A DNA stretch of 64,000 nt. Origin: a virus. The notes below the pieces were generated by a model. It searched no databases, had not been told where the DNA came from, and saw only the letters and a list, made by a program, of their open reading frames with translations. The stretch spans positions 230,945 to 294,944 of IMG/VR virus record IMGVR_UViG_3300045971_000344. One strand, 5' to 3'. The position numbers and the translations under genes are program-made. Shown here in pieces: positions 45,728-63,393 of the stretch; the first letter of the stretch is position 1; the number at the start of each line of letters is the position of its first letter.

Positions 45728-48700
45728 ATGTTAGGATCAGCAGCAGGTTTAAGCTCGAAGTTTAAAAAACAATTTGGACATGGAATTGAAGTCTCAGCGC
45801 CCAGACAAAAGGGTGTAGCTCCGGACAAAGTGTTTGAAAGTAAGATGCATGAAAAAACACTTGAAGTACCTTTATCAGAAGGTGGCCAGCCCAAGCGCGA
45901 ATTCTTGGACTGTTTGTATCGTGCTTTCTCTCCAGAAGAAAAACAGAAGGTAACTAAGAAGACCGAAGAACTTAAGATCGAGGTTTCTAAAGATTTCGGT
46001 TGGGATGTTCTTTTCCGTAAGATCAACGAAATCCAAAATACAGTTGAGGCAATAAAAGTCAGACACTTTGCTTTGTTGGCTATTATGTCCGATTTAGCTA
46101 CAGGTCAGATTTGGAACTGTTACGATGCTGAGGAAGACTATAATGCCTTTAAGGCAGGTACAGCAACAGTACCTCAAGTAGTAAATTTGATTGTTACTAT
46201 AACAGGTACTAGTAGATCTTATCGTTACCCCGAAGCTACTTCTAAAGAAGGCTTTATTGCAAAGACCGTTGGTAAAGAATTTGATGAGTACATGATTGCC
46301 ATGAATAAATTTATGGCATCAGACTCTACCTTTATTCTAAAACGTAGTGGCTCTGATATTGATCTAGAGTGGGTTGGTGATGGTAGGGCCAATGAGTCAC
46401 CTGTACCTAGTTATAACTATCCTGATCCTAAAAAGATTATTTCAAAAGAAGACTTTTCAGAACTGGTAGTTAAAAGAGAACTTGCAGGAAATTCTGGAGC
46501 TATAATTACAGCCCTTTACTCTGAGGTTTACGAGTCAGTATTTAACTTTCTTTCTTCCGTAGTTCCTGGGTTGAATACTAATCTCCATACAAAACAGTTT
46601 ACTCAGCATAAATTGGATTTTATGCTTGATCTGACTGTTAGTCGGACATTTAGAGAATACCTTATTAGGGAGTGGGACGTAATTAACCTCCCCAAAGGTT
46701 TTCAGGAAGCGCGTGGAAAGTATTTATCCCTCCTTATACACAGGGGCTACAATAAAAATTATATCCCTCTGGAGCGGGCAAAGAACGCGCAGAGATCAGC
46801 ATTCGATCTTTATGACAAAGTACGGTGTACACTTAGTGTCCCCGTTAATGTAGACGGTTCTACGCAACTTGAAGAACGTGAAGTTATTGCTACCATGAGA
46901 ACCTGGAGTAGAAATAAAAAGAAGCTTAGTGTTGATTACCAAGGTAATGAATACAAAATTACTGAAGTAAAGGACTTACGACTCTTCCTTAAAGAGGGCC
47001 TTGAGAACTTGACTAGACCAGACGTTGCTATACTTAACGCGATAAATCTCTCTCTTCATTTTACCTTTAAGATAAAAATGAATGAGCAATTTACTAGAGT
47101 GGTTACTCAGACAGTAAGCGGAAAAGTTGGGTTCTCTGCAATGCGGACATGGATTATGATTTGGCAGAAACTTAAGTTCACTCGCTCTAGAGAGTTTAAG
47201 CGCACACCTAAGTATATTCTACCTTATAGCACCTTGGCGTCCAATCCTGCGTTTAAATCAAAAAGTTCGGTACCTGCGGAACGTACAGATGAAAATGGTA
47301 TGACCGTAGATAATGTGGGAAGAATAATTTATGTCCCGCCTATTTCCGACACTCTTCCTTTAGAGTACGAAAAGACGTTGGATGAACTCTTGGAAAGTTC
47401 TTACGCTAACAATGAGCCCTTCAATATTGAGAATACAACTAGTGCACCTATTTATAAGTTAACTCGCTCTACAGAAGAGCAAGAAGCTAGGGTAGAGGGT
47501 ATAGAGAAACTTACAAGATTTAACCTGCTTCCCTTAGCAGTTAACTGGACTACCAACGTTGTTCTTTACCCAGGTAATTCTAATAAGAACAAAGTTGAGG
47601 CAGTTAACCTTGATGGGGCGATGAAACCAGATGTTAGGACAATGGCAGACTGGATGGGTATGCCTACAAGGGGAGGAGAAGAAGGTGGACCCGGGGGTAA
47701 ATTCCCTGGTGGAAAGCCAGGTATGCTGGCTTACAGTCAAATGACCGGAGTGTCTAAAATAACCGAGCCTGCAGAGCTTATTACTGCATTGTTTTTTGTT
47801 GAAGTTTTCTATGATTGGTTATTAACAAATAAAAAGGTAGCGGATTATGATACTATTTTACAAAGAGCAAAAAAGCATTTAGAGGGAATTGAGCGCGGAC
47901 CAGAAATTACTGAGATTGATACTCCTGAAATCTATAAACGTATAATAACCGATGATAAATTTATAACAGCTGGTTTATCCTCTTATGATAATACTGGTAA
48001 TGCAGGGTCGATGCTAAAAGCTGCAATGTGGGCCGCAAACCCTCATAATCCTAAGTTTCAGGCTGTTTGTAAGTCCTATACTGTTGCTACAACAGACCAT
48101 CCTTGTTATTTTAAATTAGATGAATCTACTTTATCTAAAATTCATGAAAGCCTAAGTCTTTTACTTGGTGGTGCTCTTTGGATTGAGTTGTGTAAAGAGT
48201 GTAATGAATTTCTTAAGGACCAGAAAGCCTTAGAAGACTTGATCTTGAATGGTGTTGAAATTGACCACATGGATATGTTGAATTACGATACACTATCTAC
48301 TAAGATAGTTCCTCAGATAAAGATTTGGGGCGTCTATATGCCTCAATCTGATGATATTTTACTGAAGGCGCATGAGCATAAAAAGACTTTGGAGAAAACT
48401 AAGGACTATGTACCTGAGGTTCCTGGTATTAAAGAAATAGACCCAACTGATCCAAAACAGGAGGGGTTTGCTCTACAACCACATCAGGTAGACGTAATGG
48501 CATATTCGGCGTCACACCCTAGATTTATGATCCTCGATGTTGCCCCTGGTGGTGGAAAGACGACTCTTGGGCTATCAGAGATCTTAACGTATTTAGGTGA
48601 GGGTCGGATTAAGCGTCCTATGGTAATGATGCCTGCGAAGCTCATTAAGAACTGGATTAACGATTGCATCCATGTTCTTAAAGCACCAGTTAACTTCATA

Positions 48701-51700
48701 CCCATTACAACTCAGACAATAAATAATTGGGGTCGTGAAGAACTTGCTAGGAAAATAAAAGATGCACCTCCAAATACTATCGTCTGCGTTGCGTATAAGT
48801 GGTTAAGTAATCCTACAGACACAAAGATAGTTATGTACGGTGTACGTCCAGTTAAGGTTTTGGAGAACATTGAGTTCCTTAAGCAGTTTGACTTTGATTA
48901 CATCGCTTGTGATGAGTCTCATAACCTTAAAAACTCTGGTTCTACTGAGACAGTAACACAGAAAAATGGTAAGACAAAGATTAAAGTTAAACGACCCTCT
49001 ACGGCCCATCTTTCTGTCTTACGTTTGGTCAGTACAAACTCTGTTAAGTACATTCGATTACTTACTGGTACCTTAATTAAGAACAATTTACTGGACTTGG
49101 TCGGGCAAGCTCGTTTGTTAAACCCGGCTATCTTTAGAACAATAGATGAGTTTAAAAAGGAATATGGAGACCCTAATTCGCCTGTTCCTACGGATGATGG
49201 TCGAAGGATTCAGCAAGAAATTCGGAATTATCTTGAAGAGTTTGTTACTGTTGTCCAAAAGAAGAAACGTCACTGGGCTTTTGTAATGCCAGAGTTTGTT
49301 GACCAATTCAACTTTGTTGACCCAGATGACCTTGCAAAAGAGTACTATGAGTGGCTTTGTAAGAAAACAATTGACCAAATAGAAGGAACGTTAGGTGCAG
49401 ACTCTGAAAAGTTCAAGAACTTGACTAATGGTATAAAGATAAACGCTGAGGGAGAAGACGAAGACGAAGGTGAAGATCCAGATGATGGTGGTGAAGGCGG
49501 AGGTGGTGGGGACGATGATGGTGATGATGAAGATGACGAGTCAGGTACTGATTCAGATGATGATACTCCGGGGGTGTCTTCAGATGTTGCAAAGATAGAG
49601 AGTGCTCTTAATCCGTATTTACAACGACTTGAGATGGCTTTGGTTGATCCAGAGGGAGACTCAGAATTTTCTGAGTTTAAAGATTGGGCTATAGCTAAGG
49701 GTTATGACCCCAGAGTATTGGATATGAGTCCTACTACAAAGGCTCGCAAGGTTTACGAGATCATAAAGATACACTTTGAAGGTCGTTATAACGCGACTGA
49801 CAAGTATGGGCGTAATCTTGAAGATCAAGATCCTTTGACAACTATTGATAGCCTTGAGAACTCAAATAAGATACTTATTTTCTGTAAGTTTTACCGTACC
49901 GTAGATAGCATCTACAATTTTATGCCTGAACAATTTAAGAAGTATGCGGCGAAGTATAGGGCAGCTGATTCGGCTGTCTTGGAAGACTTCTTGGTCAATC
50001 CTAAGTTGAAGATTCTGGTCGCCCTTGAAGACAGTTTACAGGAAGGTCACAACTTACAGTGTTGTTCACGCTTGATCCGCGTAGAGCAGGTTTGGACCCC
50101 AGGTGAAATGGAGCAAGGTGTTTCGAGGGTTCATAGACCAGACGTACTAAATCGTTTTGGGAGGACCAAGATTGTAAGTAACTGGATTATTACAAATGGA
50201 ACCCTTGAAATCGCTAAGATTGGTCGATTGATAGCAAAATCGGTATCGAAAGCAAAGTTTGACGAGGCGGATAGAAAGTATCAGCGTTTACCTAACCTTG
50301 AACCTATTTGTATGAGTTTTGAGGTTCTATCAGGACGTAACAGGGACGGGACGCCAAACAACATTGGTAAAAAAGAAGCGGATGATATTGCTGAATATCT
50401 TGAAGCGTTTGGTATGGACTACCATCAGACCGGTAATGTACGCGGGCTCGCTCAATTCCAAAATGAGGACTTTGAAGAAGAACGTATTAAAGCAAAAGCT
50501 GAAAATAGAGATAAGATGGTTATTGTTAAGACAAAGGAAATGCCAGCGGGCTCAAAGTTTATAAAACACCTGCCTTACGTTATTGGTCAGTCCGTATATG
50601 ACCCGAATGAACTTGGGTTAATTCCTCTTCGAGATTACTTGATCGCGCACCCTGAGCTCAAAGAAAATCTTAAAGAAGGCATCGTAGGATTACCTGTTCA
50701 TATTGCTCAAGGTGAGGGAATAATTCAGTCAATCCGAGAGGTCTCAAAAGGTTTTACTTTAAAAATTCATCTCACTACGGGTGTAACCCTTAAAAGTATT
50801 CGCTGGGATATGGTTTATGTAATAACTAAGACAGATACTAACATGAAGAAAATGCTTAAGAAAGCGAAGGGTGAGGTTGGACCCGAAGTTTCTCCTGAAC
50901 CTACAGAGAAGCAGAAGCGTGTAAGAGAAAAAATTGAACGGCTCAAAGCGCAACAGCCCGAAATGTTTAAGCCACCTAAAGAAGAAAAGGTTCCTAAAGA
51001 GCGGCGTAAGCGTAGAGAAAAAGAGGAAGAGGTAATTGTAGATACCACTGTTAAACAGCCTAAGCTCAAACCTAAGACTGTAATTGACGTTACTCAAGAG
51101 AATGAGGCGACAAAAGACAAGATTAAGCAGACTGGTAATAAAGATCGTCCTGTTAGAGAGAAGGAGAAGGATAAGATTAAACCTAGTTTGACCCCAACAA
51201 AGGATTACGAAAAGAACCTTGCACTTGATGTCTATGCAATGGACTGTAACGGGTTACCTACGCTGTTATTATCTCACGATGACCCAGATAGTAACTTAAT
51301 CGGTAGAAAATTGGGCTTTACCTACTTCGGATCTTATCTCTATTGTGAGCTCAAGACACGCCAGCAGTTTGATCAGTGTATGAAAGGTTTGGATAGCGCT
51401 GGGTTTAAACCGGGTAACAGAAGTCAAAGAGTACTTGACGCGGTCTCAAATACTTTTGTAGGAATTCAGAATAAAGAAAAAGCTTTCCTTAAGATCAAGG
51501 CAATTGATAAACGCCAGTTCTTTAACGTAAACTCAGCAGACCGCGCAAAGGTTAGAGACCCAGCTAGACTAAGTATTTACCCTATTGTTGAAGGTAATGA
51601 CCGCCTTGCACTTTACGTAGATACCTCTAAAGGTAGCGCAGGACCTATGCGTCTCAAGGCCATGAAGAAACTGCCCGATGCACCTAACGTAAAGTGGTTT

Positions 51701-51835
51701 GCCGCCTCCGGTATTTGGGTATATCAGGGTCAAAACGGTCAGAAGTTATTGAAGAAGATTGCTGAGTTCAAAGCCGTAGGCATTAAGGTTAATAACATGG
51801 CTGAAGTTAAAGCCGATATTGAAGCATTATTCTAA
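45728..51835 (+). CDS. Giant SNF2-type helicase protein, 2035 residues
   Basis: The first 900 residues are of unknown type and probably structural. A SNF2-like ATPase follows: LQPHQVDVMAYS (Q motif), APGGGKT (near residue 938), ACDESHN (near 1061), LLTGTL; then an acidic Gly/Asp/Glu linker (about 1240-1285); then the second RecA lobe with LIFCKFYRTVDSIY and QGVSRVHRP (near 1463). The C-terminal 480 residues are lysine-rich and then two related alpha/beta domains. SNF2 ATPases move along double-stranded DNA. P1 DarB, a virion protein injected to protect DNA, has comparable size and a helicase part, but no methylase motif is visible here. Location after the protease suggests a virion protein. 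Confidence 0.88.
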   Translation: MLGSAAGLSSKFKKQFGHGIEVSAPRQKGVAPDKVFESKMHEKTLEVPLSEGGQPKREFLDCLYRAFSPEEKQKVTKKTEELKIEVSKDFGWDVLFRKINEIQNTVEAIKVRHFALLAIMSDLATGQIWNCYDAEEDYNAFKAGTATVPQVVNLIVTITGTSRSYRYPEATSKEGFIAKTVGKEFDEYMIAMNKFMASDSTFILKRSGSDIDLEWVGDGRANESPVPSYNYPDPKKIISKEDFSELVVKRELAGNSGAIITALYSEVYESVFNFLSSVVPGLNTNLHTKQFTQHKLDFMLDLTVSRTFREYLIREWDVINLPKGFQEARGKYLSLLIHRGYNKNYIPLERAKNAQRSAFDLYDKVRCTLSVPVNVDGSTQLEEREVIATMRTWSRNKKKLSVDYQGNEYKITEVKDLRLFLKEGLENLTRPDVAILNAINLSLHFTFKIKMNEQFTRVVTQTVSGKVGFSAMRTWIMIWQKLKFTRSREFKRTPKYILPYSTLASNPAFKSKSSVPAERTDENGMTVDNVGRIIYVPPISDTLPLEYEKTLDELLESSYANNEPFNIENTTSAPIYKLTRSTEEQEARVEGIEKLTRFNLLPLAVNWTTNVVLYPGNSNKNKVEAVNLDGAMKPDVRTMADWMGMPTRGGEEGGPGGKFPGGKPGMLAYSQMTGVSKITEPAELITALFFVEVFYDWLLTNKKVADYDTILQRAKKHLEGIERGPEITEIDTPEIYKRIITDDKFITAGLSSYDNTGNAGSMLKAAMWAANPHNPKFQAVCKSYTVATTDHPCYFKLDESTLSKIHESLSLLLGGALWIELCKECNEFLKDQKALEDLILNGVEIDHMDMLNYDTLSTKIVPQIKIWGVYMPQSDDILLKAHEHKKTLEKTKDYVPEVPGIKEIDPTDPKQEGFALQPHQVDVMAYSASHPRFMILDVAPGGGKTTLGLSEILTYLGEGRIKRPMVMMPAKLIKNWINDCIHVLKAPVNFIPITTQTINNWGREELARKIKDAPPNTIVCVAYKWLSNPTDTKIVMYGVRPVKVLENIEFLKQFDFDYIACDESHNLKNSGSTETVTQKNGKTKIKVKRPSTAHLSVLRLVSTNSVKYIRLLTGTLIKNNLLDLVGQARLLNPAIFRTIDEFKKEYGDPNSPVPTDDGRRIQQEIRNYLEEFVTVVQKKKRHWAFVMPEFVDQFNFVDPDDLAKEYYEWLCKKTIDQIEGTLGADSEKFKNLTNGIKINAEGEDEDEGEDPDDGGEGGGGGDDDGDDEDDESGTDSDDDTPGVSSDVAKIESALNPYLQRLEMALVDPEGDSEFSEFKDWAIAKGYDPRVLDMSPTTKARKVYEIIKIHFEGRYNATDKYGRNLEDQDPLTTIDSLENSNKILIFCKFYRTVDSIYNFMPEQFKKYAAKYRAADSAVLEDFLVNPKLKILVALEDSLQEGHNLQCCSRLIRVEQVWTPGEMEQGVSRVHRPDVLNRFGRTKIVSNWIITNGTLEIAKIGRLIAKSVSKAKFDEADRKYQRLPNLEPICMSFEVLSGRNRDGTPNNIGKKEADDIAEYLEAFGMDYHQTGNVRGLAQFQNEDFEEERIKAKAENRDKMVIVKTKEMPAGSKFIKHLPYVIGQSVYDPNELGLIPLRDYLIAHPELKENLKEGIVGLPVHIAQGEGIIQSIREVSKGFTLKIHLTTGVTLKSIRWDMVYVITKTDTNMKKMLKKAKGEVGPEVSPEPTEKQKRVREKIERLKAQQPEMFKPPKEEKVPKERRKRREKEEEVIVDTTVKQPKLKPKTVIDVTQENEATKDKIKQTGNKDRPVREKEKDKIKPSLTPTKDYEKNLALDVYAMDCNGLPTLLLSHDDPDSNLIGRKLGFTYFGSYLYCELKTRQQFDQCMKGLDSAGFKPGNRSQRVLDAVSNTFVGIQNKEKAFLKIKAIDKRQFFNVNSADRAKVRDPARLSIYPIVEGNDRLALYVDTSKGSAGPMRLKAMKKLPDAPNVKWFAASGIWVYQGQNGQKLLKKIAEFKAVGIKVNNMAEVKADIEALF

Positions 51836-58806: not shown

Positions 58807-59364
58807 ATGATTATTCAAAAACTTACCCTTGAAGAATTACAAGTCAAGATCCAAAAGGGAAAAAAGTACAAACAACTTCTAGAAGCATTTCAGACGAATA
58901 GACTGTATAACATAAATTTGGATGAGTATAAAGAAGAAATAACAGCTCTTCATCGTGCTAGATCAATCCGGACTCTTATTAATTTTTGTAATGACAAGGC
59001 CGCCACTAGTATGGTAGACGAAGTCATACGAGCCAATCTTACAGACCAAGCACAAAGGGGACGTTTAACAGAGATTCTCTTGACCTGCGTTAGAGCGTCT
59101 AATGCCTTGAATGAAGCAATTAGTGTATTTAAGGACTTTGCTTTGATTAGGTATGACTCGTATCTGACTAAGATAAAGACAAAAGGTGAAAGGGCTACCT
59201 TTCTGGACACACTCTTATCTGATATGCAGACATACAGCGCAGATTGCGAGCTCGTTATTAACTTGGCAAAATTGGTAATTGCAGATATAGACCAAGGCGG
59301 ATGGGCTCTCTCCAGAACAATAGAGGCTCTGAAGATAACTAACGCCCCTGAAAAACGGATATGA
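58807..59364 (+). CDS. Unknown helical protein
   Basis: 185 residues, almost entirely helical (EELQVKIQKGKKYKQLLEAF, AISVFKDFALIRYDSYLTKI). No leader or recognised family. Its stop lies 1 base before the helicase start, so the two are likely coupled, and it may be a partner in replication. Confidence 0.72.
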   Translation: MIIQKLTLEELQVKIQKGKKYKQLLEAFQTNRLYNINLDEYKEEITALHRARSIRTLINFCNDKAATSMVDEVIRANLTDQAQRGRLTEILLTCVRASNALNEAISVFKDFALIRYDSYLTKIKTKGERATFLDTLLSDMQTYSADCELVINLAKLVIADIDQGGWALSRTIEALKITNAPEKRI

Positions 59365-59365
59365 T

Positions 59366-60508
59366 ATGGATCTTAAACCTAAAGTAATTTTGGATAATAA
59401 GTGTTGGATCCCTGCTTCGTTATTGAGCCTAAAGAGAGTTAGATCTCGTTATTTAGTTTATCGTTATGAAGAAAAAGCCTGTATTAAATGCGAGCACCAA
59501 CAAGAAAAAGGACCTAATGATGAACCTTACTATCTCTGTGAAAGTTGTGCAGGGTTTTTAGGTAAGTATAAGCTCTATGAAAGAAAAGAAATAAATGGCG
59601 TACCGTACATTGGGTTCCATAATGGAGACCGGCTGAATCTCTGTAAGAAGCTTAAGTTAGACAAAAGTGTATTTAAGAATACAGTCGATAATCGTATTGA
59701 GAAAAAGTTTAAATACGATATTAACTTTACTGGTACATTGCGTCCTCATCAGATAGATGCCTTAAAACAGTGGAATGACTATAACTTTGGTCAGTTAATG
59801 GCTCCACCACGTTCAGGGAAGACCGTGCTCGCGGTTAACCTTACTGTTAACCTAAAAGTACGGACCCTTATACTTACGCATCAAGGCGATCTTTTGGACC
59901 AGATGCTACAGTCCTTTTATGACTTCACAGACATAAAGGACGTAGAATTTGAACATAAGAAACAGCTGGTAGGTATAGCAAAGAAACCCGAGGACTTTAA
60001 GAAATGGCCAATTGTACTCGCTACCTATCAGAAGTTTATAACCCCAAAGGGTAAAAAGAGACTTGAAAAGATCGTTAAGAAATTTGGACTCGTTATAGTG
60101 GATGAGGTTCATCGTGCTAATAGTACATGTTTTAGTGCAGTCCTAGCACAGTTTCATGCTAAGTATAAAATTGGATTCACAGCCACACCCAAGAGGAAGG
60201 ATTGCTTCATAAAAGGCACTCAAGTACTCTTAAGTAATGGGGAATACGCGCCTATAGAAGAACTAGCAAAAAATCCTGAGAAGTTTTCAGTTAAAACTTT
60301 TAATCATTCTTTAGGGGTTATCGAAGATAGTAAAATACTATTAGGTCATACTAGAAAAAAGTCTTCATTAATTAAGATTAAGTATAAAGGAGACTATATT
60401 GTTTGTACTCCAGATCAACAATTTTGGTCAAAAACACGAAAAGCTTATATTAATGCCAAAGACCTAGAGCTAGGAGAAGAAATCTTAGACTTTAGTGATA
60501 TAGCGTAA
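59366..60508 (+). CDS. SF2 helicase, N-terminal half fused to N-intein
   Basis: 380 residues. Helicase part 1-279: zinc knuckle CIKC/CESC (near 34 and 50), TGTLRPHQIDALKQW (Q motif), APPRSGKTV (K152), VIVDEVHR (D246), and GFTATPKRKD (motif III) at its end. Residues 280-380 are the N-half of an intein. The C-half of both helicase and intein is at 61667-62617, with an opposite-strand gene in between. Joined by splicing, the helicase would be 556 residues, of the UvsW or phage-type DEAD family. The stop is 24 bases inside the endonuclease gene's 3' end. No good ribosome binding site; likely coupled. Confidence 0.93.
   Translation: MDLKPKVILDNKCWIPASLLSLKRVRSRYLVYRYEEKACIKCEHQQEKGPNDEPYYLCESCAGFLGKYKLYERKEINGVPYIGFHNGDRLNLCKKLKLDKSVFKNTVDNRIEKKFKYDINFTGTLRPHQIDALKQWNDYNFGQLMAPPRSGKTVLAVNLTVNLKVRTLILTHQGDLLDQMLQSFYDFTDIKDVEFEHKKQLVGIAKKPEDFKKWPIVLATYQKFITPKGKKRLEKIVKKFGLVIVDEVHRANSTCFSAVLAQFHAKYKIGFTATPKRKDCFIKGTQVLLSNGEYAPIEELAKNPEKFSVKTFNHSLGVIEDSKILLGHTRKKSSLIKIKYKGDYIVCTPDQQFWSKTRKAYINAKDLELGEEILDFSDIA
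60203..60505 (+). other. N-intein half (101 residues)
   Basis: Block A starts CFIKGTQVLLSNG, right after GFTATPKRKD of the helicase. Block B region reads IKYKGDYIVCTPDQQFW. The conserved His of T-x-x-H is Gln (codon CAA at 60416-60418, intein residue 72). It ends with LELGEEILDFSDIA, then a stop. Length matches known split N-inteins (about 100). Confidence 0.93.
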
Positions 60509-61561
60509 TACTTGTCTACGTGTCAGCTCGATCCAGTTTATTGGTAATTTTATTTTTTCTTTTTTGCTATTATAGCAGTATAGTTTAAACTTAAAGCCTT
60601 GCTTAATACACGCTTTTGCTTTTTTCTTAACTTTATTAAATTCACTTGGACTATTATGGTATAGTCCAAGTGTATAGTCAGATTTTACTTCTATTATTAA
60701 GTTTTTATGAGGAATAAAGATATCAGGGTAATAAGTTTTACTTTTACCTTTAAACTTATAAGAGATCTGTGGTATGGCTTGACCAAGTCCTGCATTAATG
60801 GCACTAATCTCGTATTTTTTAGAAAGTTCTTCTAAAGCTAAATGTTCATACCCTTGGATAATAAATTTTTTACCTTTAAGCTTAAACGTAAAAGTTTTTC
60901 TTTTATTTTTGTCTATTGCACATTTTCTACAACCAGTATAGCCCTCCTTAGTTCCAAGAATAGCTCCTAAAGTAGTTTCAAATACACTGTCACAGTCATA
61001 GCATATAACTTTTACTCGGCTCTTAGCTGGATCCTCTGAAATTGAAATAAGTTTAATCTTATGGTTATGCTTACTCATTTTATTTTTTATTCTACGTTTT
61101 ATTTCTTTTTCTGTTAGTCTATTCTTTTGTCCGCCTACTTTAGCTGCACAAATAGGACACCCATAACTTGTTTTTAGTACTAATCTAATTTTATTATAAA
61201 ATATGTGTCCTTTATTACACTCTATTTTTGCCAAGTCTTCCCTTGTTTTTTGAGTTCTTAGTACTATGAACCCAGGAAAGCGTTGTTCCAATTCGTCAAC
61301 TAGTTCTTTAGTTTTATTAACCCAAGCATTAAATCGTGTTTTTATTCTATTTTCTGTTTCCTTTTCTTTACTGCATTTTGGGCATCCCGATTTTCTAGCA
61401 GTAACTAAATTACTTGGTTTTTTAGAAAAAATATTTTTACAAACTAAGCACTCACATTTTACTTCTTTACTTTTCTTTATGTATTTTTCTAAAACTTTAA
61501 TTGTTGGGTGAATATCTAGCATTTCCTTTAAAAATTGCTCTTCTGTTCTTTTTGCACTCAT
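60485..61561 (-). CDS. Vsr-like homing endonuclease, opposite strand
   Basis: 358 residues, the only minus-strand gene. Three Cys2-Cys2 treble-clef-like repeats at the N-terminus (CLVCKNIF then CPKC, CNKGH then CPIC, CYDCDSVF then CRKC). The C-terminal part is the nuclease: GYEHLALEEL then YYPDIFIPHKNLIIEVKSDY, the pattern of the Vsr-like (I-Bth0305I) homing-endonuclease family. It is predicted to cut an intein-free helicase allele and drive copying of this segment. The ribosome binding site AAAGGTGG lies 10 bases before its ATG. It converges with the N-half and has its own gap upstream for a promoter. Confidence 0.92.
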   Translation of the reverse strand: MSAKRTEEQFLKEMLDIHPTIKVLEKYIKKSKEVKCECLVCKNIFSKKPSNLVTARKSGCPKCSKEKETENRIKTRFNAWVNKTKELVDELEQRFPGFIVLRTQKTREDLAKIECNKGHIFYNKIRLVLKTSYGCPICAAKVGGQKNRLTEKEIKRRIKNKMSKHNHKIKLISISEDPAKSRVKVICYDCDSVFETTLGAILGTKEGYTGCRKCAIDKNKRKTFTFKLKGKKFIIQGYEHLALEELSKKYEISAINAGLGQAIPQISYKFKGKSKTYYPDIFIPHKNLIIEVKSDYTLGLYHNSPSEFNKVKKKAKACIKQGFKFKLYCYNSKKEKIKLPINWIELTRRQVLRYITKV

Positions 61562-61596
61562 TTAGTATTCCACCTTTTTACACTAAAATTAACGGC

Positions 61597-61645
61597 TACT
61601 CCTATATGTATAAATTATGTAATTTAATATTAATGCTTAGGAGTA
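61597..61645 (+). promoter_or_regulatory. Inverted repeat in divergent promoter region
   Basis: TACTCCTA (61597-61604) and TAGGAGTA (61638-61645) form a perfect 8-base inverted repeat with a 33-base AT-rich spacer, in the gap between the endonuclease start and the C-half start. It could be an operator or a hairpin controlling either gene. Confidence 0.4.
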
Positions 61646-61666
61646 TCACTAAACTTAGGAGAAAAT

Positions 61667-61783
61667 ATGCCAGTAGAAGCCATTGAATACTTGAATTTTA
61701 TAGAAGATACTTATGACATTACAGTTGAGTCTAATAATAATTTTTTTATTAAACAAAATAATAGTACTTTATTGGTTCATAAC
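61667..61783 (+). other. C-intein half (39 residues)
   Basis: Residues 1-39 of the C-half protein. Block F DTYDITVESNNNFF and block G TLLVHN end just before Cys40. The final His-Asn and the +1 Cys are the standard splicing residues. Length matches known split C-inteins (about 36-40). Confidence 0.93.
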
Positions 61784-62617
61784 TGTTTAGAGTTTGTAAT
61801 TGAACAAATTATTGGTCCAGTTACTTCTAAAATTGAACCTGAACAGGTTATACCTAAAGTATTTGTCCATGAGTCTGGTGTTAAGCCCAAGCATGAGTAT
61901 AAGCAGTGGGTATATGCAATGCAATTTCTAGCCAAAGATAAGGACCGTCAGAAAATGATAGTTGATATGGCTGTTAAAGACGTTATCGCCGGATACTACG
62001 TAGTTATCCCTGTTGTCTTTGTTAAACAGGCCAATGAACTCGCAGATGCAATAGAAAAACGTCTGTATAAGAAATACGATAGACGTGGTCTTGCTATTGC
62101 TTTTACTTCAAAGGTAAAGGACAGAAAAGATGTATTGGAAAAGATACGAAAGGGTAAAATAAAGGTTACTGTAGGTATACGCTCTCTTATACAGGCAGGT
62201 ATAAATGTTCCTCGCTGGTCATCTATAATAGAATGTAGTCCTATAAGTAATAAGCCAAATCATACTCAAGAGATTGCCAGGATCCGAACACCCGCACCTG
62301 AGCTGAATAAACCACAACCCATTATACACCAAATAGTAGATGAAAAGATGGGTGGAATGAGTACGGGTTGTTTCAGAACCTGCTTTCAAGTATACAAGGA
62401 CTTTGAATGGGACCCATCTAGTTACGCTGAGGCAGTACGTTTATTAAGGGGATTAAAGCCCTCGTCTAACTATGATGAGTACGCTGTTAAGCCCGTTAGG
62501 CTCATACAGAATGATAAGTCACTTTTTGATGATTCTTCTAAGTCTACTAAAGACAAAACTGTAAATAAGGAAAAACGTGGTTTTGGGTTCGGTGGGCTAA
62601 ATCCAAAAATAAGGTGA
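61667..62617 (+). CDS. C-intein fused to SF2 helicase C-terminal half
   Basis: 316 residues: C-intein 1-39, then the helicase from Cys40. CLEFVIEQIIGPV continues directly from KRKD of the N-half, as in intact SF2 helicases (RKDxLE...IIGPV). Motif V GIRSLIQAGINVPRW and motif VI QEIARIRTP lie in this half. It has its own ribosome binding site (TAGGAGAA, 5-6 bases before ATG), so the two halves are made separately. Trans-splicing would rebuild the helicase. Confidence 0.93.
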   Translation: MPVEAIEYLNFIEDTYDITVESNNNFFIKQNNSTLLVHNCLEFVIEQIIGPVTSKIEPEQVIPKVFVHESGVKPKHEYKQWVYAMQFLAKDKDRQKMIVDMAVKDVIAGYYVVIPVVFVKQANELADAIEKRLYKKYDRRGLAIAFTSKVKDRKDVLEKIRKGKIKVTVGIRSLIQAGINVPRWSSIIECSPISNKPNHTQEIARIRTPAPELNKPQPIIHQIVDEKMGGMSTGCFRTCFQVYKDFEWDPSSYAEAVRLLRGLKPSSNYDEYAVKPVRLIQNDKSLFDDSSKSTKDKTVNKEKRGFGFGGLNPKIR

Positions 62618-62622
62618 GAACC

Positions 62623-63393
62623 ATGAGTAAAAAGAAAAAACGTGAGATCGAAGAAGACGAAGATTCTCATTTATTGGACGATGAAGACGAGGAAGATAAG
62701 AAACTAGAACAAGAAGAAGAGGAAAAAGAAGAACAAGATAAAAAGAAAAAGAAAAAAGTTAAAGAACTTGGATCAGTAAAGATTTCGCATAACCATGACG
62801 TTAAATTTGCCAAGCTCTTGCGGTCCCGTGGGGTTTCAACTCTGGATTTACTTCATGGCTCGCGCTCGTTTCTTCTTGAAGACGTTATACTACCAATTGA
62901 ATCAAATACTTGGGAACGGTGTAAAAGAATAAGCTCAGATAAACAGCTTGGATGGTATCATCGTGCCTATCAGAAGGTATTATCCAATAACTGGCTCTGT
63001 GCAGGTATAGGCGGAACTCCAACGGATGCTCGTGCAAAGCAAGTAGCTCTCCATATTTTTATAAAAGCAATCTATGAGTATCAAGAGCGAGATCCTAGAA
63101 AGAACGTTGGACGCGCATTGCCTTATTGGCACAACGTCTATGGTGGGTTCAATGATTATCTTAGAGATTTGAAATCAGATTTTCCATCTTTTATAGTAAT
63201 CTCTAATATCACGCCTACCTGTACTTCTTTGAAGCTCGAAAAAGTTAGAGATGCTTTAACACGTTATACAAATATGGAGATACCTGTACTTGTTGTTTGT
63301 GCGGGTATGGATCCCTTTACCCTCTTTTCATCTAAACTTTATTTCCCCATAAAATGGTGCTTAAACATTGGTAATCCTTTGGTAGCAGTCTGA
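62623..63393 (+). CDS. Unknown protein with acidic/basic N-terminus
   Basis: 256 residues from ATG 62623 with AAGGTGAG 4-5 bases upstream; a GTG at 62614 overlaps that site. The first 50 residues are highly charged (long Glu/Asp then Lys runs). The rest is an alpha/beta domain (WERCKRISSDKQLGWYHRAY, FIVISNITPTCTSL, IPVLVVCAGMDP). This resembles a partial AAA+ or loader fold but there is no Walker A. It is next to replication genes; role unknown. Confidence 0.72.
   Translation: MSKKKKREIEEDEDSHLLDDEDEEDKKLEQEEEEKEEQDKKKKKKVKELGSVKISHNHDVKFAKLLRSRGVSTLDLLHGSRSFLLEDVILPIESNTWERCKRISSDKQLGWYHRAYQKVLSNNWLCAGIGGTPTDARAKQVALHIFIKAIYEYQERDPRKNVGRALPYWHNVYGGFNDYLRDLKSDFPSFIVISNITPTCTSLKLEKVRDALTRYTNMEIPVLVVCAGMDPFTLFSSKLYFPIKWCLNIGNPLVAV

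What the first reader, a model, noticed from the sequence alone, without database searches (positions are those of the whole stretch)
59366..62617. Fractured helicase gene: split intein plus opposite-strand Vsr-like homing endonuclease
Seen: the SF2 helicase stops after GFTATPKRKD and runs into a 101-residue N-intein; a minus-strand endonuclease follows; then a separate ORF starts with a 39-residue C-intein ending HN and continues the helicase from Cys. Known: fractured genes with split inteins and a separate endonuclease between the halves were described in metagenomic DNA for other replication and metabolic genes, and this nuclease family (Vsr-like, I-Bth0305I) came from that setting. Inference: this is a further case, in a UvsW/DEAD-type helicase at its motif III, with the two halves made separately and trans-spliced.
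Basis: partly seen in the sequence, partly recalled or inferred. Interest (0 to 1): 0.9.

Follow-up and report, generated by a model that had tools for sequence, protein, structure and literature searches.

The report
Phage helicase split by mobile intein
In a giant phage, a DNA-repair helicase is encoded as two separate genes that should be stitched together as proteins by a split intein, with a DNA-cutting gene lying backwards between them; near-identical cultured phages with and without the same kind of insert show what looks like the scar of its jumping.

Summary
Observation confirmed. The UvsW-like helicase of a 295-kb phage record is split exactly as described: 279-aa N-extein + 101-aa N-intein, a convergent opposite-strand nuclease gene, then a separately started ORF with a 39-aa C-intein + 277-aa C-extein. 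Both intein halves pass NCBIfam cut-offs, a syntenic relative (61% identical) carries the joined, intein-free gene, and no intron is detected. Interpretation mostly holds, with one correction: the nuclease is not an EDxHD/I-Bth0305I enzyme; its catalytic residues are E-PD-ExK behind treble-clef zinc modules. (ii) The +1 Cys travels with the element: 0 of 63 uninterrupted orthologs have Cys there. (iii) A third phage has the halves 33 kb apart on opposite strands, so only trans-splicing could join them. (iv) T4-like phages are split at the homologous site with a different nuclease. Splicing is not shown; the window's block-B His is Gln. A new member of a known kind (fractured genes), with an unusually testable natural pair.

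The parts
59366..60202 (+). N-extein: SF2 (UvsW-like) helicase, zinc-binding N-terminus plus RecA-1 with P-loop (APPRSGKT), DEVH box and motif III (GFTATPKRKD); 279 aa
   Evidence: ResIII 1.7e-25; phrog_16 8.4e-33
60203..60508 (+). N-intein, 101 aa + stop: block A CFIKGTQVLL, block B CTPDQQF (canonical TxxH reads TPDQ)
   Evidence: TIGR01445 over cut-off
60485..61561 (-). Homing-type endonuclease gene, 358 aa, convergent with the N-half gene and overlapping it by 24 bp
61367..61471 (-). First treble-clef zinc module of the nuclease (DUF4379-like, residues 31-65); a DUF723-like module follows at residues 88-139
60488..60907 (-). Nuclease catalytic domain (residues 219-358; DUF7487 C-terminus) with E239, P279-D280, E291-x-K293
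   Evidence: (pLDDT 92.9)
61657..61661 (+). AGGAG Shine-Dalgarno-like sequence 5 nt before the C-half ATG, consistent with separate translation
61667..61783 (+). C-intein, 39 aa: block F TYDITVESNNNFFI, block G LLVHN
   Evidence: TIGR01443 over cut-off
61784..62617 (+). C-extein: rest of the helicase (RecA-2) from +1 Cys, 277 aa + stop
   Evidence: (Helicase_C)
61784..61858 (+). Possible co-conversion tract: first 20-25 codons of the C-extein have GC3 0.05-0.08 (extein windows average 0.34; about 1% are as low). Weak, post hoc

Best explanation
A mobile composite element, a split mini-intein plus an opposite-strand PD-(D/E)xK homing endonuclease, sits after motif III of the phage's UvsW-like helicase. 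The two half-genes are translated separately. The intein fragments associate, fold into one HINT domain and trans-splice (Cys1 to Cys+1, cyclisation of Asn at HN|C), giving a 556-aa helicase with a scar at +1 (Cys; usually Gly in uninterrupted relatives). The nuclease cuts uninterrupted alleles during co-infection; repair from the split allele copies the element together with a short flanking tract that supplies the required +1 Cys. Shown here: anatomy, intein profiles, intein-free alleles, the same arrangement at the same codon in cultured phages with a footprint matching co-conversion, and linkage of the +1 Cys to the element. Inferred: trans-splicing, nuclease activity and target, and the direction of the JA11/JA13 change.
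For: Both intein halves over NCBIfam cut-offs, with Cys1, His-Asn and Cys+1 intact. Syntenic uninterrupted ortholog with KRKD|RKEFLIEHIIGPVTSK. Same codon split in Dickeya phages JA11/JA33 with an unannotated opposite-strand homologous nuclease, about 30% identical. JA13 has the joined gene; JA11 carries 1496 bp there, and JA11/JA13 differ at 3 sites within 7 bp upstream and 10 within 23 bp downstream, against 5 in the other ~1580 bp compared; synonymous except the +1 codon (Ala versus Cys). The JA13 and JA29 records do not appear in the nuclease search. Cys is absent after RKD in all 63 distinct uninterrupted orthologs (43 Gly) and present in all three RKD-site split alleles. In G001 the halves lie on opposite strands 33 kb apart. 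No group I/II intron in the segment or window. Own ribosome-binding site for the C-half.
Against: No splicing or cleavage data. The near-invariant block-B His is Gln in this intein (CTPDQQF) and the block-F His is Asn (Asn in JA11 too), so splicing could be slow or lost. The window's N-intein is only 22-27% identical to the other motif-III-site inteins, and sites do not group in a tree, so the window's element and JA11's may be separate invasions. JA11/JA13 polarity is mixed: 6 near-site positions have JA13=JA29, 4 have JA11=JA29, so loss in JA13 is not excluded. The co-conversion hint in the window itself is weak.
Confidence: 0.85

Rival explanations
1. The intein has decayed and the two polypeptides work as a non-covalent, two-chain helicase, like the genes-in-pieces reductase created by a homing endonuclease insertion.
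For: Block-B His replaced by Gln and block-F His by Asn; a two-chain enzyme made by HEG insertion is known (NrdA case cited in PMC10448857).
Against: Cys1, penultimate His, terminal Asn and Cys+1 are all kept, and both halves still pass intein cut-offs. The +1 Cys is absent from 63 uninterrupted orthologs, so its presence makes most sense if splicing matters or mattered.
Confidence: 0.1
2. The insert is removed at RNA level as an intron with an antisense HEG.
For: Relatives of the nuclease domain also sit between pieces of a gp32-like gene (L022), where an intron is possible; CapR/DUF4379-type HEGs occur in phage introns (PMC12350094).
Against: No intron family in 59300-62700 at E<=1 or in the window at gathering scores. 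Intein sequence abuts both junctions. In G001 the halves are on opposite strands 33 kb apart, where cis splicing is impossible.
Confidence: 0.02
3. Pseudogene or assembly artefact: the helicase has been inactivated by a nuclease insertion.
For: Metagenomic contig, no reads available. The authors of the Dickeya phages left open whether the two JA11 ORFs are functional (PMC6143709).
Against: Extein motifs intact across the junction. The same architecture is in the deposited genomes of cultured phages JA11 and JA33. Inactivation would not preserve an in-frame HINT pair with its own start and ribosome-binding site.
Confidence: 0.03

Closest known systems
Fractured genes of Dassa et al. 2009 (gp41-1, NrdJ-1, IMPDH-1 type split inteins with a nuclease gene between the halves; paper not held, known through citing papers and memory)
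   Same: Split intein shared between two half-genes with a free-standing nuclease gene between them, from phage-like DNA
   Different: Host gene here is a UvsW-like helicase split at motif III (whether that paper lists this gene could not be checked); the nuclease is PD-(D/E)xK with zinc modules, not EDxHD; near-identical cultured phages with and without a same-type element exist
Pseudomonas phage MIJ3 split PolB intein (PMC6892783)
   Same: Jumbo phage, split intein with an endonuclease ORF between the gene halves
   Different: Host gene is DNA polymerase B; nuclease is HNH; no empty allele of a near-identical phage is described in the passages read
Two-ORF helicase of Dickeya phages JA11/JA33 (PMC6143709)
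   Same: Same helicase family, same codon, same layout; found here to hold a split intein and an opposite-strand homologous nuclease
   Different: Reported as an insertion/deletion or duplication of unknown consequence, without intein or nuclease; N-intein only about 27% identical to the window's
I-Bth0305I / EDxHD (Vsr-like) homing endonucleases and their CapR/DUF4379 outgroup (PMC3943268, PMC12350094)
   Same: Phage homing-type nuclease with zinc modules before a C-terminal nuclease domain of PD-(D/E)xK-like order
   Different: Active-site motif here is E-PD-ExK; DUF7487 C-terminus; no significant fold match
Cyanobacterial split DnaE (from memory)
   Same: Halves of one enzyme joined by a split intein; G001 resembles it, with halves far apart on opposite strands
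   Different: The window's halves are still adjacent with a nuclease gene between them

Membership tests
Fractured gene with split intein | N-intein fused to the N-extein (blocks A, B) | tested here: met
   TIGR01445 27.9 bits, cut-off 24.5; block B His is Gln
Fractured gene with split intein | C-intein fused to the C-extein (blocks F, G, HN|C) | tested here: met
   TIGR01443 24.6 bits, cut-off 15.6
Fractured gene with split intein | Separate nuclease ORF between the two half-genes | tested here: met
Fractured gene with split intein | Uninterrupted alleles exist with the exteins joined at the same point | tested here: met
   L002; Dickeya JA13, AD1 and others
Fractured gene with split intein | Trans-splicing to the full protein | not testable with these tools
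   Needs co-expression
Class 1 intein | Cys/Ser at position 1, TxxH in block B, HN at the end, nucleophile at +1 | tested here: inconclusive
   Cys1, HN and Cys+1 present; TxxH reads TPDQ
EDxHD / I-Bth0305I homing endonucleases | EDxHD active-site motif | tested here: not met
   E239, PD279-280, E291-x-K293 shared by six relatives
EDxHD / I-Bth0305I homing endonucleases | Vsr-like fold of the catalytic domain | tested here: inconclusive
   Confident model (pLDDT 92.9), but no PDB hit with E <= 0.001 (best 0.014); Vsr 1vsr at rank 28, I-Bth0305I not in the top 50
PD-(D/E)xK nucleases | PD...(D/E)xK motif in a helix-strand core order | tested here: met
   weak fold matches include SSO0001 and RecE
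UvsW-like SF2 phage helicase | P-loop, DEVH, motif III and C-terminal RecA domain, in order | tested here: met
Homing element | Cleavage of uninterrupted alleles and super-Mendelian spread | not testable with these tools
   Only the footprint in JA11/JA13

The most novel reading that the evidence does not exclude
The UvsW-type helicase of large phages is a recurrent target of self-mobilising fractured-gene elements (different nucleases, same motif III site). They can invade sites that lack a usable +1 nucleophile because they bring the Cys by short co-conversion. When the nuclease is lost, the halves can drift apart (G001, 33 kb, opposite strands) into an obligate dnaE-like split gene.
Probability: 0.45. 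Interest if true: 0.72.

Novelty: new member of a known kind. Interest (0 to 1): 0.6.

Why it matters
As far as I know, how fractured genes arise and move has been inferred mainly from metagenomic fragments. The window's case leads to cultured, nearly identical phages with and without a same-type element (JA11 and JA13), so homing by a split intein with a free-standing nuclease can be tested by simple co-infection. It also shows an element tied to its own +1 Cys, which would loosen the usual limit on where inteins can insert, and a possible path from an adjacent fractured gene to a dispersed, obligate trans-spliced gene.

Tried and rejected
RNA intron: none found. EDxHD/I-Bth0305I label: motif not met. 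Orthology of the motif III inteins: tree of N+C parts unresolved, sites do not cluster. Structure of the full nuclease: Foldseek uninformative; the catalytic domain alone gave a good model but no significant match. Profile search of the PDB with the catalytic domain: no hit. Direct IMG/VR search with the window intein: no relative. L110 from the ATPKRKDC scan: no helicase-like ORF seen there, treated as chance. Bacterial genomes with the C-half profile: none. A second contig like G001 was sought with its N-half: only G001 itself matched over its full length. Dassa 2009 and Taylor 2011: not held. Sigma-70-type promoters around the locus: no more than in shuffles.

Full report
Check of the observation. 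The window is the last 64 kb of a 294,944-bp virus record. At 59366-62617 the three ORFs are exactly as described: helicase N-half with 101 extra residues after GFTATPKRKD, a 358-aa minus-strand ORF converging on it with a 24-bp overlap, and a separately started C-half with 39 residues ending HN before Cys. On the unmodified proteins the extra parts exceed NCBI's cut-offs for intein N- and C-terminal splicing regions and match complementary parts of Pfam Intein_splicing (fused, just under Pfam's cut-off). The exteins match consecutive stretches of one phage helicase family.

Intein-free relatives. An IMG/VR contig (L002) has the same gene order and an uninterrupted helicase, 61% identical, reading KRKD-RKEFLIEHIIGPVTSK where the window reads KRKD-[insert]-CLEFVIEQIIGPVTSK. 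Among 63 distinct uninterrupted orthologs the residue after RKD is Gly in 43 and Cys in none. The three split alleles found at this site all have Cys. The +1 Cys therefore belongs to the element rather than to the ancestral gene.

Cultured phages. Dickeya phages JA11 and JA33 carry a split helicase at the same codon (TATPKRKD|CFTAG..., VLVHN|CLHYRVES), with an unannotated opposite-strand nuclease between the halves that aligns over most of its length with the window's. The isolating authors noticed that JA11/JA33 have two helicase ORFs and JA13/JA29 one, and read it as an insertion/deletion or duplication of unknown effect (PMC6143709). JA11 has 1496 bp between the codons that are adjacent in JA13. 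Over 1,610 flanking bp the two differ at 18 positions; 13 of these lie within 7 bp upstream or 23 bp downstream of the insert (hypergeometric P about 1e-20, the tract bounds chosen post hoc), all synonymous except the +1 codon, Ala in JA13 and Cys in JA11. This is what homing with short co-conversion would leave. With JA29 as third party the direction is only mildly in favour of gain in JA11 (6 positions against 4). Co-conversion of an unsuitable flanking residue on intein invasion has been inferred for haloarchaeal MCM (PMC10643990).

A dispersed allele and other cases. A pattern search for ATPKRKDC found a third allele (G001, IMGVR_UViG_3300036770_007945): N-half with N-intein at 75.2-76.1 kb on +, C-half with C-intein at 108.7-109.4 kb on -. 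The nuclease profile found nothing there, but had no positive control in that record. If the contig is right, only trans-splicing could join these halves. Seven IMG/VR loci from T4-like phages, the more complete of them showing both halves, have UvsW split at the homologous position (GTLDGTQ|CFTSD..., ALVHN|CHKLVLEG), with a same-strand ORF carrying a NUMOD3 motif between them; two related uninterrupted UvsW genes have Thr at that +1 position. Yersinia phage fHe-Yen9-02, Vibrio phage GR11A and Bacillus phage G have split inteins in related helicases at the DE|CH motif II site.

The nuclease. It has N-terminal zinc modules (DUF4379, DUF723) and a DUF7487 C-terminal domain. Six relatives share an E-PD-ExK pattern. 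The catalytic domain folds confidently (pLDDT 92.9) in an order typical of PD-(D/E)xK enzymes, but no PDB match reaches E 0.001. The EDxHD signature of I-Bth0305I is not met. CapR/DUF4379-type modules followed by a domain distantly related to EDxHD/Vsr have been described as a large unrecognised outgroup of those enzymes (PMC12350094), and this gene may lie near it.

Mechanism and limits. Best reading: a mobile split-intein/nuclease composite, protein trans-splicing, and spread by homing that imports the +1 Cys. Trans-splicing and cleavage are inferred. The block-B His to Gln change is the main caution. Intein sequences are too diverged to tell whether the window and JA11 elements share one invasion. 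The composition hint of a co-conversion tract in the window is weak.

Verdict. Real, a new member of the fractured-gene kind, with a corrected nuclease assignment and a natural cultured pair that makes the mobility question testable.

Noticed in passing
L004, L016 (Dickeya phages JA11, JA13): Near-identical phages with and without the 1496-bp element; differences crowd at the insert ends. The JA11 nuclease is not annotated in GenBank.
   Followed up: yes
L109/L115/L116 (IMGVR_UViG_3300036770_007945): Helicase halves 33 kb apart on opposite strands; C-half next to a GTP cyclohydrolase gene, as in the usual neighbourhood; N-intein ends just after block B (78 aa), C-intein 49 aa.
   Followed up: partly
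L119-L123, L125, L132: T4-like phages with UvsW split at the homologous site, with a same-strand NUMOD3-containing ORF between the halves.
   Followed up: partly
L006 (Vibrio phage GR11A): One helicase gene with two inteins: a continuous one at the P-loop GK|T and a split one at DE|CH with an EDxHD-like opposite-strand nuclease.
   Followed up: partly
L005 (Bacillus phage G): Helicase split at DE|CH; the ORF between the halves shows no nuclease annotation, and the C-half has a long N-terminal extension before the C-intein.
   Followed up: no
L163: Clamp-loader-like gene split after DE|C by a split intein with a TnsA-like (PD-(D/E)xK) nuclease ORF between the halves.
   Followed up: no
L022:5013-7164, L021:4566-7048: Relatives of the window nuclease sit between pieces of a gp32-like gene and of a nucleotidyltransferase/HD-type gene; introns possible.
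   Followed up: no
61599-61652: ACTCCTA ... TTAGGAGT inverted repeat in the 105-bp gap before the C-half, spanning a TATAAATT stretch; role unknown.
   Followed up: no
45728-51835: 2035-aa protein matching phage DNA helicase families (phrog_21391).
   Followed up: no
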